A stretch of DNA of 64,000 nt from Crassaminicella profunda. GTDB lineage: Bacteria; Bacillota; Clostridia; Peptostreptococcales; Thermotaleaceae. Numbering within the stretch: the stretch's first letter is position 1; each line of letters begins with the position of its first letter. The translations under genes and the position numbers were made by a program. The notes under the pieces were generated by a model, which made no database searches, was not told the DNA's origin, and worked only from the letters and a program-made list of their open reading frames with translations. The stretch spans positions 3,899,355 through 3,963,354 of the forward strand of contig NZ_CP082326.1 of assembly GCF_019884785.1 (NCBI RefSeq), written 5' to 3'. This document shows, piece after piece, positions 29,302-33,450 of this stretch.

Positions 29302-30771
29302 TTAATCCCACAAATCTATTTTCTCTAATAGGTAAAATAATATTTTTTTTCTCCTTGTTATTATATGTGATTCACAAAGCATTCCAACTTTAATTTGTGA
29401 TTTGTCTCCCTTATAGCTATATAGTGGTTTATCTGTAATGCTTGCCTCCACCATATAGTATCCAGCTGTATTATTATCAGACAATGTAGCATCGGTGCTT
29501 ATACTTTCAATTTCACCTTCTAATTCGCCATATTCTCTATGGGGAAGTGCAAGAAAATGATACTTAATCTTATCACCAATATGGATATTTGATATATCTT
29601 TATTAGAAATATATATCTGTATTTTGTATCCTGATCCATCTTCTGGTACAATGGTTGCAACTTCTTTTCCGTTCATAATCAAATCACCATTGCTGATTTG
29701 ATTGATTAAATTTGTATAGCCTGTAACTTGAGCATATATATTGCAATTATTTATCTTAAGGTTAAGTGATTCTATTGAATCATTTATGGAGGATATTCTA
29801 TCATTTACTACCTCAATTTCATTATTGATATTAATTAAATAATCGGTTTTTATATCTTCTAATATATTTTCTATATCGTCTGTAAATTCTGCGTCTTTAT
29901 TTATTTGTTTAAGCTCATATTTATACTCTTCCAATGATTTTTTATTGCTATCTAGGTTTGTTCTCATGTCTAATTCACAAGAAGTTACATATTCTTCAAA
30001 TTCTAATACTATTGTTTCATTATTGCTTTTTATTTTATCATACTCCATCTTCGAAATAATTCCAGCTTCAAATAATACTTTATTATTCTCTAATTCTTCA
30101 TTACTAGATTTAACCTTATTACTATGATTTTTATAAGTATTTAGATATTTATCAAACATGAGTGAATATTTTATATTATCCTCATCAATCAAATTTTTTC
30201 CACTTTCCATTGAATGAAGAAAACCCTGTATTCCTAAAAGTTCTTTATTTATATCCCTTATTTTTTGTTTAATTGAGTCTACCTTACTTCTACTTCCTTC
30301 AAGTTCTTTATGATACTTTAAATATCTATAGTAATAATCACTTTCTTCCTTAATATCTTTACTAAATAAATTATTTTCAGCGATTATTGATTCCTTAAGC
30401 TTATTAAGGTTTAATAGATCTAATTTCTTTTTATCAAGTTCTCTTTTCCTGCTCTGAATTTCTAAATTAAGTTCATCACTATTTAGAGAGAGTAATAATT
30501 CTCCTTTTTCAACCTTTTTCCCATTTTCTAAATTTACATAAGTTGCTTTTCCTGTGGCTTTACTAGTTATTGTATTTATACCTTGACTTGGACGAACAAT
30601 ACCATTCGCCTTAACCACCAAGTCAATCTCTCCAAAATAACTCCATATGAGTGCAACTAATATAATTGTCACTATGATGTATATAAAAGTCTGAATAAAT
30701 GGTAACGGCTTACTTTCTAATAGTTCTCTACTATCACTTATTTCTGAAATATCTACAATAGTACTCTTCAC
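29302..30771 (-). CDS. HlyD-type bacteriocin secretion adaptor
   Basis: This 489-residue protein has one N-terminal membrane helix (about 25-45), a lipoyl half-motif near 60-95 (YVNLENGKKVEKGELLLSL), a very long coiled coil (about 100-340) and a C-terminal beta domain with YKIQIYISNKDISNIHIG. It fits the accessory proteins (LcnD/CvaA type) that work with peptidase-containing ABC transporters. It starts at GTG 30771 behind GGGGGTG and begins 14 bases after the transporter stop. It ends the four-gene export operon. Confidence 0.9.
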   Translation of the reverse strand: MKSTIVDISEISDSRELLESKPLPFIQTFIYIIVTIILVALIWSYFGEIDLVVKANGIVRPSQGINTITSKATGKATYVNLENGKKVEKGELLLSLNSDELNLEIQSRKRELDKKKLDLLNLNKLKESIIAENNLFSKDIKEESDYYYRYLKYHKELEGSRSKVDSIKQKIRDINKELLGIQGFLHSMESGKNLIDEDNIKYSLMFDKYLNTYKNHSNKVKSSNEELENNKVLFEAGIISKMEYDKIKSNNETIVLEFEEYVTSCELDMRTNLDSNKKSLEEYKYELKQINKDAEFTDDIENILEDIKTDYLININNEIEVVNDRISSINDSIESLNLKINNCNIYAQVTGYTNLINQISNGDLIMNGKEVATIVPEDGSGYKIQIYISNKDISNIHIGDKIKYHFLALPHREYGELEGEIESISTDATLSDNNTAGYYMVEASITDKPLYSYKGDKSQIKVGMLCESHIITRRKKILFYLLEKIDLWD

Positions 30772-30785
30772 TTCTATTCACCCCC

Positions 30786-32981
30786 TCAACAACTAGATGT
30801 GGCATAGTGATGACAATCATCATATTCAGGAAGCTGTTCTTTCCACATATTAAAATATTTACCTTTCTTATCTATTAATTCCTCATGGGATCCTACTTCA
30901 ATTATTTCACCCTTTTCCAAGACATATATTTTATCACATTTTTTAATAGTGCTTAATCTATGGGCTATGATAATTGTTGTAACGTTTGAATTTAATCCAT
31001 TGATAGTCTTTTCAATAGCTTTTTCAGTGAGAGAATCTAAATTACTAGTAGCTTCATCAAGGATCATTATATCTGGCTTTTTTAGAATTGCTCTTGTAAT
31101 AGATATTCGCTGCCTTTGTCCTCCAGATAAATTAGCTCCATTTTCCTCTAGCCTACATTTATATCTAACAGGTAAATTGTTAATAAAATCATGGGTCTTT
31201 GTAAGCTTAGCTGCTTGTACGATTTCTTCCATTGTTGTATCGTTTCCTAATTTTAAATTTTCTTCTATGGTCCCGCTAAATAAAAAGGTATTTTGTGGAA
31301 CATAGGCTATTCTATCTCTTAAAACGTTGATATTTATATCTTTTATATTGTTATCATTAATTAAGATCTCACCTTTTTCAATCTTATATAAGCTTAATAT
31401 TAATTTTACTAAAGTAGTTTTACCCGAGCCACTCTCCCCTACAAGTGCTATTCTTTCCCCTTTTGATATATTGAGATTAATATTTTTTAAAACTAGTTCT
31501 CTCGTACCATATCTAAAATCTACATTTTTAAAGCAAATATCACCATCTAAACGATCAGGTGATAGCTTTCTATTCTCATCCTCATCCTTTTCTAGTTCAA
31601 GGTCAAGAATCTCCCCTAATCTATCTGAAGCAACTATAGCGGTCTGCATTTCTGGTTGTAAATTAATTAAATTCTTAACTGGATCAACAAAATATACTAA
31701 CAATGAATTAAAGGTTATTAATTGTCCAATTGACAAATTCCCCTTTATAACATGATATGCTCCTACCCAAAGAATAACGATCCCACCTATACTTGCAATA
31801 AGCCCTGATAGCGTTGATTGATAGTTCATAACTTTTCCAGACTTAAAGATTTTTTTTAAAAATCTGACGAAGTTAGCCTCTGTTTTGATTTTACATTCTT
31901 CCTCTGCATTAAATGCTTTTACAGTTTCTATACCATTTAAGCTCTCTATTAAATAGGAATTTAGTTGAGCACTTGATTCCATTACCTCTCGCTCCACTCT
32001 ATTAATAGGCTTATTAAATAAAAATACAATAAGACAATAGAGTACTAGCATAATAACTGCTATGAAAAACAGCGTAGAATTTTGTATATAAAGTATTATT
32101 CCTCCTGCTATGGCCATTATAGTATCTATCATTATGGTTAAAGTAGCACCAGAAATTGCCTCTCTTATTTTTGATGCATCCATAAATCTAGATATAATTT
32201 CACCAACTCGTCTCGTACCAAAAAAGTTTAACGGCAAATCTAATACATGCTCGTAATATCCTAAAATCAATGGAATATCTATTCTTTGACTAAGATATAA
32301 TAAAAGATGTGTTCTAAAAGCATTTAAAATTCCCTTAATAAGATTCAGTATAATTACGCCAACAGATATAACATGTAATGTTTTTTTTAAATTATATTGC
32401 AAAATATCATCTAATAAAAACTTAAAATAAAAAGCTCCTAAAATACCTAATACCGTATATATAATAGAAGCCAAAAATATATTAAATAGTAATCTTCTCT
32501 GAGGTTTAATTAAACAAAAAAACCTTTTATAGATGCTTTTTGTTTCATTTCCCTTTTTAAAGGTTGATGTTGGTACCATTAAAATAAGTACACCTGTCCA
32601 AATCTTAAAAAAATCATCTGGCGTATAATTTACCACTCCTACATCTGGATCTGCTATAATTATTTTATCTTTATCTACATGATGAATGACTACATAGTGA
32701 AGTATATTTTCATTAATGATGACATGGGCAATCGCCGGTAGCGGAAATTCTGAAAAAATTGCTTCCTTCTCTCCCTTTACTCCCTTTGCTGTAAACCCCA
32801 AGGCTTTAGCTGCTTTTACTAGTCCATATGCATTTGTTCCTTTTTTATCTGTCCCAGCAACTTGACGAATCTTTGATATAGGCATTTGTAGTCCATATTG
32901 CTTACATATGGTTGCAATACATGCTGCCCCACAGTCAGTAATATCATGTTGCTTGACACAATAATATTTTTCTTTCAACAT
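30786..32981 (-). CDS. Peptidase-containing ABC transporter (C39 type, bacteriocin exporter)
   Basis: This 731-residue transporter has three domains. The C39 peptidase (1-140) has Cys17 in ITDCGAAC, His95 in HYVVIH and Asp111 in ADP; a six-helix membrane domain spans about 160-440; the ATPase spans 480-720 with GESGSGKTT, LSGGQRQRISITRAI and MILDEATSNLD. Such PCATs cut double-glycine leaders and export the mature peptide in one step. The two leader peptides lie just upstream on the same strand, separated by a stem-loop. RBS GGAGGAAT. All catalytic residues are present, so it is probably active. Confidence 0.95.
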   Translation of the reverse strand: MLKEKYYCVKQHDITDCGAACIATICKQYGLQMPISKIRQVAGTDKKGTNAYGLVKAAKALGFTAKGVKGEKEAIFSEFPLPAIAHVIINENILHYVVIHHVDKDKIIIADPDVGVVNYTPDDFFKIWTGVLILMVPTSTFKKGNETKSIYKRFFCLIKPQRRLLFNIFLASIIYTVLGILGAFYFKFLLDDILQYNLKKTLHVISVGVIILNLIKGILNAFRTHLLLYLSQRIDIPLILGYYEHVLDLPLNFFGTRRVGEIISRFMDASKIREAISGATLTIMIDTIMAIAGGIILYIQNSTLFFIAVIMLVLYCLIVFLFNKPINRVEREVMESSAQLNSYLIESLNGIETVKAFNAEEECKIKTEANFVRFLKKIFKSGKVMNYQSTLSGLIASIGGIVILWVGAYHVIKGNLSIGQLITFNSLLVYFVDPVKNLINLQPEMQTAIVASDRLGEILDLELEKDEDENRKLSPDRLDGDICFKNVDFRYGTRELVLKNINLNISKGERIALVGESGSGKTTLVKLILSLYKIEKGEILINDNNIKDININVLRDRIAYVPQNTFLFSGTIEENLKLGNDTTMEEIVQAAKLTKTHDFINNLPVRYKCRLEENGANLSGGQRQRISITRAILKKPDIMILDEATSNLDSLTEKAIEKTINGLNSNVTTIIIAHRLSTIKKCDKIYVLEKGEIIEVGSHEELIDKKGKYFNMWKEQLPEYDDCHHYATSSC

Positions 32982-33085: not shown

Positions 33086-33247
33086 CTATGCAGCAGCTTT
33101 TTTCTCTTTTGGTTTTTCTCTTCTATCTTTACCAATACCATATCCGCCTACAAATGCAGTGATTACTGCACAAACGAAGTAAAAGAAAGCAATACTACCT
33201 CCGTTAATATCCATTAATTCTTGATCATTTAATTTAACAAAATTCAT
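33086..33247 (-). CDS. Double-glycine-leader peptide 2 (bacteriocin-like precursor)
   Basis: This 53-residue precursor has leader MNFVKLNDQELMDINGG (17 residues), which fits the class II consensus with hydrophobic positions -12, -7 and -4 and Gly-Gly at the cut. The mature part of 36 residues has a hydrophobic helix with one cysteine, then AFVGGYGIGK and a Lys/Glu/Arg-rich tail ending in three alanines. The helix-plus-charged-tail shape suggests a membrane-active peptide. AGGAGG lies eight bases before the ATG. It is paralogous to peptide 1. No immunity protein is seen. A signalling role cannot be excluded. Confidence 0.85.
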   Translation of the reverse strand: MNFVKLNDQELMDINGGSIAFFYFVCAVITAFVGGYGIGKDRREKPKEKKAAA

Positions 33248-33282
33248 TACAACGCCTCCTTTATTCTAAAATTTAGACCTCA

Positions 33283-33450
33283 TTAAGCTGCTTTAGCTTC
33301 TCTTTCATGCTTAGGCTTTGATTTACCCCAGATCCATCCACCTGCGAAAGCTAAGAAAACTATAATTCCAGCTACTACACTTCCTATACCACCATTAACC
33401 TGCATTAATTCATCATTATTCAGGTCGTTAAACATTGCTGTTCTTTTCAT
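33283..33450 (-). CDS. Double-glycine-leader peptide 1 (bacteriocin-like precursor)
   Basis: This 55-residue precursor has a 21-residue leader ending LNNDELMQVNGG. The mature part of 34 residues starts IGSVVAGIIVFLAFAGG, followed by WIWGKSK and a basic/acidic tail ending in Ala-Ala. It shares AFxGG(W/Y)xxGK with peptide 2, so the two arose by duplication and may act together as a two-peptide bacteriocin. It has no pediocin YGNGV box and no cysteine pair. RBS AAGGAGGTGA is optimal. It is first in the operon with peptide 2, exporter and adaptor. Confidence 0.86.
   Translation of the reverse strand: MKRTAMFNDLNNDELMQVNGGIGSVVAGIIVFLAFAGGWIWGKSKPKHEREAKAA

What the first reader, a model, noticed from the sequence alone, without database searches (positions are those of the whole stretch)
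29302..33450. Two overlooked double-glycine peptide genes with a complete export machine and no visible immunity gene
Seen: two short ORFs (33283-33450, 33086-33247) with optimal ribosome sites, leaders ending LMQVNGG and LMDINGG, and mature parts of 34 and 36 residues sharing AFxGG(W/Y)xxGK and an alanine-ended charged tail. Immediately downstream are a C39-peptidase ABC transporter with all catalytic residues and an HlyD adaptor. Established: this gene set makes and exports class II bacteriocins or peptide pheromones. Inference: a two-peptide membrane-active bacteriocin of a type without YGNGV or disulfide motifs. No immunity protein is recognisable between 28949 and 34062, which is unusual for a bacteriocin and leaves a signalling role open.
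Basis: partly seen in the sequence, partly recalled or inferred. Interest (0 to 1): 0.75.

Follow-up and report, generated by a model that had tools for sequence, protein, structure and literature searches.

The report
Exported peptide pair, likely clostridial bacteriocin
A stand-alone four-gene set makes and exports two small membrane-seeking peptides, most likely an ordinary two-peptide antibacterial weapon of a clostridium, and its lack of a visible self-protection gene is shared by many related gene sets.

Summary
Two 53-55 residue double-glycine precursors lie just upstream of a C39-peptidase ABC exporter (PCAT) and an HlyD adaptor, in a unit bounded by terminator-like hairpins. Standard models do find them: both pass NCBIfam's class IIb cut-off. 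That hit is leader-driven: neither mature part matches alone, and 3 of 6 chimeras with shuffled mature parts still pass. The genome has one C39 gene and two hits to that peptide model, all here. The exporter is PCAT1-like, with relatives of 60-70% identity in other Clostridia and Paenibacillus. The two mature parts resemble each other (1 of 20,000 shuffles reach their score); the second also resembles a published class IIb peptide of Clostridium estertheticum. No immunity gene is visible, but 15 of 27 fully flanked relative loci also lack a multi-helix candidate; others carry CAAX-type or DUF3267 membrane peptidases. No peptide-sensing regulator lies in the unit. Best reading: a new member of the clostridial class II, two-peptide-like bacteriocins; signalling is less likely. 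Activity is inferred, not shown.

The parts
33283..33450 (-). precursor peptide 1: 21-residue double-glycine leader, 34-residue mature part (hydrophobic Gly-rich helix, cationic tail, net +3)
   Evidence: PF10439 27.9 bits, cut-off 27.1; TIGR03949 27.3, cut-off 21.5
33086..33247 (-). precursor peptide 2: 17-residue double-glycine leader, 36-residue mature part (same plan, net +4)
   Evidence: (TIGR03949 28.2); PF10439 21.1 is below its cut-off
33023..33056 (-). strong perfect hairpin between peptide 2 and the exporter gene, no U-run; probably an mRNA end or processing element
   Evidence: z -7.4; role inferred
30786..32981 (-). peptidase-containing ABC transporter (PCAT), C39 peptidase + membrane + ATPase domains
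   Evidence: TIGR01193 702.9 bits, cut-off 523.85; PCAT1 8e-266
29302..30771 (-). HlyD-type adaptor (GTG start)
   Evidence: HlyD_3 50.5, cut-off 22.2; below the cut-offs of TIGR01843 and TIGR01000
29133..29175 (-). terminator-like hairpin followed by eight T, ends the unit before the sigma-factor gene
   Evidence: z -2.6; not listed by the simple terminator scan
33881..33934 (-). strong hairpin between the upstream GGDEF/HD gene and the unit, probably that gene's transcript end
   Evidence: z -4.4; role inferred

Best explanation
A self-contained class II bacteriocin operon of a clostridium. The two precursors are made together. The C39 domain of the PCAT cuts after the double glycine and the PCAT, with the HlyD adaptor, exports both mature peptides (inferred from intact catalytic residues and leaders). 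Outside, each folds on contact with a membrane into one hydrophobic glycine-rich helix with GxxxG-like motifs and a cationic tail; the two pack together in the membrane of a competitor and de-energise it, as lactococcin G/plantaricin-type two-peptide bacteriocins do (inference by anatomy; mode of action recalled). Self-protection is either unlinked, from a small unrecognised protein, or from an insensitive target.
For: Both precursors pass the class IIb model, as does the published C. estertheticum CF013 pair. The leader of CtA, PCAT1's substrate, is their best PDB match, though not significant (E 0.27). Exporter closest to PCAT1. One C39 gene in the genome, beside the only two peptides of this model. 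Of 47 exporter relatives, 37 have an HlyD gene within 3.5 kb downstream, 28 a double-glycine ORF within 4 kb and 9 two or more by a loose motif; 22 and 6 by a strict motif. Relatives encode a class IIa-like peptide (L062; class recalled, judged by eye) and tandem hydrophobic peptides (L060; L081, L096; L181). A published C. estertheticum class IIb pair has a similar plan (PMC12947273 Table 2), and one member resembles mature peptide 2 (4 of 40,000 shuffles, 67 of 40,000 half-wise; picked from 18 comparisons). Predicted helix over residues 3-44 (mean pLDDT 69, two-sequence alignment).
Against: No immunity gene in or beside the unit. The class IIb model hit comes mostly from the leaders. The two mature parts resemble each other, whereas published pairs are usually dissimilar (recalled). 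No close homologue of either peptide in 391 class genomes, 393 order genomes or the genome-contig scan, which used two short patterns, so no independent conservation of the mature parts. Against the tandem peptides of L181, 3 of 4 comparisons are not distinguishable from shuffles. No activity data exist.
Confidence: 0.52

Rival explanations
1. Two tandem paralogous single-peptide (class IId-like) bacteriocins, each active alone, from a gene duplication.
For: Mature parts score 49 against each other, reached by 1 of 20,000 full shuffles and 64 of 20,000 half-wise shuffles; shared motif AFxGG(W/Y)xxGK.
Against: Hydrophobic-helix-plus-charged-tail peptides can resemble one another by composition; the helix parts alone (847 of 20,000) and the tails alone (3,314 of 20,000) are weak.
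Confidence: 0.22
2. A secreted product whose role is not killing: a processed envelope or other extracellular peptide, as is open (recalled) for CtA, the PCAT1 substrate.
For: Exporter is closest to PCAT1, whose branch exports repeat-rich CtA-type peptides without HlyD (L066-L068) and, in L066 and L067, without a multi-helix neighbour.
Against: The window's peptides have no KYGV/LYGI repeats and are short, cationic and helix-forming; the unit has HlyD as the relatives with bacteriocin-like peptides do.
Confidence: 0.12
3. Peptide pheromones of a cell-density signalling system.
For: Absence of an immunity gene; PCATs such as ComAB and BlpAB carry pheromones (PMC7018657 passages).
Against: No sensor kinase or peptide-binding regulator in the unit; the two kinase/regulator pairs tested in the window are HisKA types with OmpR-like regulators, 14 kb and 22 kb away, though one also passes the GHKL model (24.4 bits, cut-off 22) over its ATPase domain; 34-36 residue hydrophobic mature parts with charged tails are long for pheromones (recalled).
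Confidence: 0.09
4. A decaying bacteriocin locus that lost its immunity gene and is no longer expressed.
For: Presence is patchy: no exporter at E<=1e-100 in 3 other genomes of the genus, no cassette within the 18 kb taken around the 72% identical upstream gene of G004; one relative (L181) has a stop in a leader and a truncated exporter.
Against: All four reading frames are open, ribosome sites of the peptides are ideal and catalytic motifs are intact here.
Confidence: 0.05

Closest known systems
Class IIb cluster of Clostridium estertheticum CF013 (PMC12947273, Table 2)
   Same: clostridium; two double-glycine precursors classed as IIb, both over the TIGR03949 cut-off; one peptide resembles mature peptide 2
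   Different: sequences differ over most of their length; its gene map and any immunity gene are in a supplement I did not see
Clesteriocin A cluster cleDABC of Candidatus Clostridium mucoides (PMC12947273, passages)
   Same: double-glycine precursor, PCAT and HlyD-family protein in a clostridium
   Different: one class IIa precursor, and an immunity gene cleD is assigned
PCAT1 and its substrate CtA (PDB 4ry2, 7s5j)
   Same: exporter aligned over residues 2-715 at 887 bits; leaders align over L-D-ELM---GGS (E 0.27, not significant)
   Different: CtA-type loci have no HlyD hit and a long repeat-rich substrate downstream of the exporter (L066-L068)
Plasmid pZL221 unit (NZ_CP100661, L007)
   Same: two peptides, PCAT, HlyD in the same order
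   Different: ends with a CAAX-type membrane protease, a likely immunity protein, absent here; neither peptide passes TIGR03949
G651 locus (L181, same order)
   Same: two tandem double-glycine peptides with lysine-rich tails before PCAT and HlyD
   Different: has a 66-residue one-helix ORF and a DUF3267 membrane peptidase between peptides and exporter; second peptide has a stop in its leader and the exporter is truncated; mature similarity is weak
Lactobin A/cerein 7B class IIb family (TIGR03949)
   Same: both precursors over the curated cut-off
   Different: score rests on the leader; mature parts alone give no hit

Membership tests
TIGR03949 class IIb bacteriocin, lactobin A/cerein 7B | whole precursor over curated score | tested here: met
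   27.3 and 28.2 bits, cut-off 21.5; 0 of 9 relative peptides pass it
TIGR03949 class IIb bacteriocin, lactobin A/cerein 7B | mature part itself resembles the family | tested here: not met
   0 of 2 mature parts match; leader 1 alone gives 17.5 bits; 3 of 6 shuffled-mature chimeras still pass, one at 30.5 bits
class IIb two-peptide bacteriocin | two precursors, exporter and accessory protein in one cluster | tested here: met
   five-gene definition from PMC6957408 introduction passage
class IIb two-peptide bacteriocin | dedicated immunity gene | tested here: not met
   none in 28949-34062; no ORF of 40-330 aa with 2 or more helices within 3.5 kb before and 4.5 kb after the exporter; the three over-cut-off CAAX proteases of the genome are more than 170 kb away; no DUF3267 in the genome at E 0.01
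class IIb two-peptide bacteriocin | GxxxG or GxxxG-like motifs in both mature peptides | tested here: met
   GWIWG, SVVAG and others; GYGIG, AFVGG and others; weak discriminator for any glycine-rich helix; requirement from PMC6382864 passages
class IIb two-peptide bacteriocin | both peptides needed for activity | not testable with these tools
   needs peptides and an assay
PCAT double-glycine exporter | C39 domain with Cys, His, Asp plus ABC membrane and ATPase domains | tested here: met
   Pfam PF03412, PF00664, PF00005 over cut-offs; residues C17, H95, D111; PCAT1 alignment
three-component peptide pheromone system | sensor kinase or peptide-binding regulator with the peptide gene | tested here: not met
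   flanking genes are GGDEF/HD and an ECF sigma factor with a DUF4367 partner behind a terminator-like hairpin; the two kinase pairs tested are 14 kb and 22 kb off; distant regulators elsewhere in the genome were not searched

The most novel reading that the evidence does not exclude
The two peptides are homologous halves of a pair that needs no dedicated immunity protein: each partner, or an unequal ratio of the two, neutralises the other inside or at the producer, so the pair is weapon and antidote in one. Paralogy without immunity is what that would look like.
Probability: 0.06. Interest if true: 0.65.

Novelty: new member of a known kind. Interest (0 to 1): 0.24.

Why it matters
It adds a sequence-distinct peptide pair to the little-sampled class II bacteriocins of clostridia, and it shows on a defined set of relatives that lack of a recognisable immunity gene is common beside PCAT units. 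It also shows that the class IIb model can be passed by these leaders with shuffled cargo (3 of 6), so an annotation resting on it says 'PCAT substrate' more than 'bacteriocin'.

Tried and rejected
Viral contig hit L002: a stretch of a phage terminase-like ORF by eye, a chance match. Plasmid search with peptide 2 only: three Streptococcus suis records at E 2-9, not significant; peptide 1 was not searched there. The genome-contig scan with the peptide pair used two short patterns and found 157 matches, none confirmed. TIGR03949 in 16 family genomes: only the window's own genome over the cut-off, G013 below it. Class profile search: 8 of 13 rows lie in frames of 235-539 aa and are not small peptides. 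Of the 22 genomes with rows in the order search, the window's own included, I opened four small-frame loci (L172, L174, L175, L179); by eye none has AFxGG(W/Y)xxGK. Two further weak leader hits in the genome are an EbfC/YbaB-like and an XRE-like ORF by eye. Known RNA in the 5' region: none. An ECF sigma-factor link: set aside because of the terminator-like hairpin. Conserved neighbourhood: relatives of the upstream gene and of the DUF4367 gene were looked for in 16 family genomes, but only the upstream gene's best relative, in G004, was opened; no cassette there. Of the 80 rows kept (91 found; L098-L156; 28-35% identity, Flavobacteriaceae-type titles) were not analysed.

Rows dropped before counts: L083, L089 and L091 (same contigs as L063, L067, L068) were dropped but not; L076 has no exporter. 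L181 and L182 entered through peptide searches, not the exporter search, so they lean towards having peptides. In one search the loose counts include one antisense ORF (L082) and a tandem duplicate (L051). My helix count ignores one-helix proteins, so a CbnZ-like gene would be missed by it, though no such ORF with a ribosome site exists in 28900-34100.
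Full report
What is there. On the minus strand four open frames follow one another: peptide 1 (33283-33450, 55 aa), peptide 2 (33086-33247, 53 aa), a C39-peptidase ABC exporter (30786-32981, 731 aa) and an HlyD-type adaptor (29302-30771, 489 aa, GTG start). Both peptides have AGGAGG ribosome sites and leaders ending in LMQVNGG and LMDINGG. 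A terminator-like hairpin with eight T follows the adaptor (29133-29175; z -2.6), a strong hairpin lies between the upstream GGDEF/HD gene and the unit (33881-33934; z -4.4), and a very strong perfect hairpin without a U-run lies between peptide 2 and the exporter (33023-33056; z -7.4). The simple consensus scan listed neither the first nor the third, and no convincing promoter (27 promoter-like sites against 35 expected). The unit looks like one transcript of exactly four genes; this is inference from sequence.

Is it more than chance? Both precursors pass NCBIfam TIGR03949, class IIb bacteriocin lactobin A/cerein 7B (27.3 and 28.2 bits, cut-off 21.5); peptide 1 also passes Pfam PF10439 (27.9, cut-off 27.1), peptide 2 does not (21.1). 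In the 4,589,101-base genome there is one C39 match and two TIGR03949 hits, all here. A search with the bacteriocin leader model gave three rows: peptide 1 and two that are an EbfC-like and an XRE-like frame by eye. So the set is real, and the word 'overlooked' is not supported as far as family models go.

How far the model hit goes. I tested what carries the TIGR03949 score. Leader 1 alone gives 17.5 bits. Neither of the two mature parts alone gives any hit. Of six controls with the real leader and a shuffled mature part, three still pass the cut-off, one at 30.5 bits. On the other side, 0 of 9 relative peptides scanned pass, while both published CF013 precursors and one of two further relatives do. 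The hit says 'substrate of a C39 exporter with hydrophobic cargo'; it does not by itself make these class IIb bacteriocins.

The exporter and its kin. The best solved relative is PCAT1 (887 bits, aligned residues 2-715), well ahead of ComA (561 bits). C17, H95 and D111 and the ATPase motifs are present. None of 3 other genomes of the genus has the exporter at E 1e-100 or better; 25 of 391 sampled class genomes, the window's own included, have one at 1e-150. Named relatives include Paenibacillus woosongensis, Petrocella, Sporosalibacterium and Herbinix. I analysed 47 relative loci: 25 from the genomes, 18 of the 80 rows (59 rows of low identity and three duplicates left out), two plasmid loci and two found by peptide. 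Of these 47, 37 have an HlyD gene within 3.5 kb downstream, 28 have a double-glycine ORF with a ribosome site within 4 kb, and 9 have two or more; with a strict leader motif 22 and 6. Such ORFs are denser near the exporter (37 in 317 kb) than far from it (5 in 152 kb; binomial p 0.002; strict motif 28 against 3, p 0.003); the loci are related and a few contigs are short, so the p values are only a guide.

What relatives export. L062 has a peptide with YPNGLYC near its start, which I read as pediocin-like (class IIa; recalled). L060, L081 and L096 have tandem hydrophobic glycine-rich peptides. L066-L068, without an HlyD hit, have CtA-type repeat-rich peptides. L181, from a genome of the same order, has two tandem peptides with lysine-rich tails before an exporter and an adaptor; the second has a stop in its leader and the exporter is truncated. 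A 2026 paper reports six class II clusters among 33 C. estertheticum-complex genomes, two of them class IIb; its class IIa cluster has precursor, PCAT, HlyD-family protein and an immunity gene (PMC12947273; section 3.2 read, other passages seen).

The peptides themselves. Mature part 1 (net +3) and mature part 2 (net +4) share one plan: a hydrophobic helix with GxxxG-like motifs, then a charged, alanine-ended tail. Their local score of 49 is reached by 1 of 20,000 full shuffles and 64 of 20,000 shuffles that keep helix and tail apart, but the helix parts alone (847 of 20,000) and the tails alone (3,314) are weak; they are probably paralogues. Mature part 2 scores 45 with a C. estertheticum CF013 peptide (4 of 40,000 and 67 of 40,000; the best of 18 comparisons, most of which were unremarkable). 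Against L181's two peptides only one of four comparisons stands out (42 of 10,000). A two-sequence AlphaFold model gives one helix over residues 3-44, mean pLDDT 69, of limited weight. No close homologue was found in 391 class genomes, 393 order genomes or one genome-contig scan with two short patterns. None of four peptide strings occurs in the held papers.

Immunity. Published class IIb clusters have at least five genes, one a dedicated immunity protein with membrane helices (PMC6957408, introduction passages). Here none is visible. But 15 of 27 relatives with full flanks also have no ORF of 40-330 aa with two or more helices other than a double-glycine peptide; some of these 15 are CtA-type or distant loci and may not be bacteriocins. 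Others carry candidates: CAAX-type proteases in L006, L007 and L182, and one by motif in L051; DUF3267 in L070, L181 and L182. The window's genome has three over-cut-off CAAX proteases, all more than 170 kb away, and no DUF3267. A 42-residue, one-helix protein gives immunity to carnobacteriocin XY (PMC6957408 section 3.1), so a tiny gene elsewhere is possible. In the pneumococcal rtg locus, which secretes its own double-glycine peptides, five of seven peptide genes have immunity-like neighbours and the authors could not determine the peptides' function (PMC7018657 passages).

Signalling. The neighbours are a GGDEF/HD protein upstream and an ECF sigma factor with a DUF4367 partner downstream, behind the terminator-like hairpin. 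The two kinase/regulator pairs tested, at 12912-15021 and 55870-57998, are HisKA types with OmpR-like regulators; one also passes the GHKL model over its ATPase domain. I tested only these two pairs and did not search the genome for distant sensors.

Verdict. Observation confirmed; interpretation partly supported. The likeliest reading is a class II, two-peptide-like bacteriocin unit, a new member of a known kind. Its killing activity, the need for both peptides and the self-protection are inferred or unknown. Membership in TIGR03949 by mature sequence and the immunity-gene criterion of class IIb were tested and not met, so I do not file it as a proven class IIb bacteriocin; it most likely works like one.

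Noticed in passing
L060:4834-5319, L058 (155-aa ORF), L081:8253-8831, L082 (216-aa ORF), L181:908-1375: A 155-216 residue protein that looks alike by eye recurs beside PCAT/HlyD/double-glycine units. Two of three scanned matched DUF5085 below its cut-off (L060; L181); L081's gave no hit. It ends in 'YIGINPN'-like sequence and could be a substrate-handling partner. None seen beside the window's unit.
   Followed up: partly
L070, L181, L182: DUF3267 membrane zincin peptidases beside PCAT units in 3 loci, once together with a CAAX protease: candidate immunity proteins.
   Followed up: partly
L051: A roughly 3 kb block with a double-glycine peptide, a three-helix 114-residue ORF, a CAAX-type ORF by motif and the start of an exporter gene is repeated in tandem.
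   Followed up: no
L053, L055, L057, L059: Four genomes of one genus share a nearly invariant 51-residue double-glycine peptide with a 22-residue mature end ([IV]DSPRQC...) beside the exporter; such conservation looks more like a signal than a bacteriocin.
   Followed up: no
L077, L078: Two Paenibacillus loci encode a double-glycine precursor with four repeats ending TT(L/M)AxGEE, plus a second glycine-zipper peptide, downstream of PCAT/HlyD.
   Followed up: no
G500: One genome of the same order has 7 rows for the peptide profile on four contigs, 6 of them in frames of 130 aa or fewer: possibly many double-glycine peptides in one cell.
   Followed up: no
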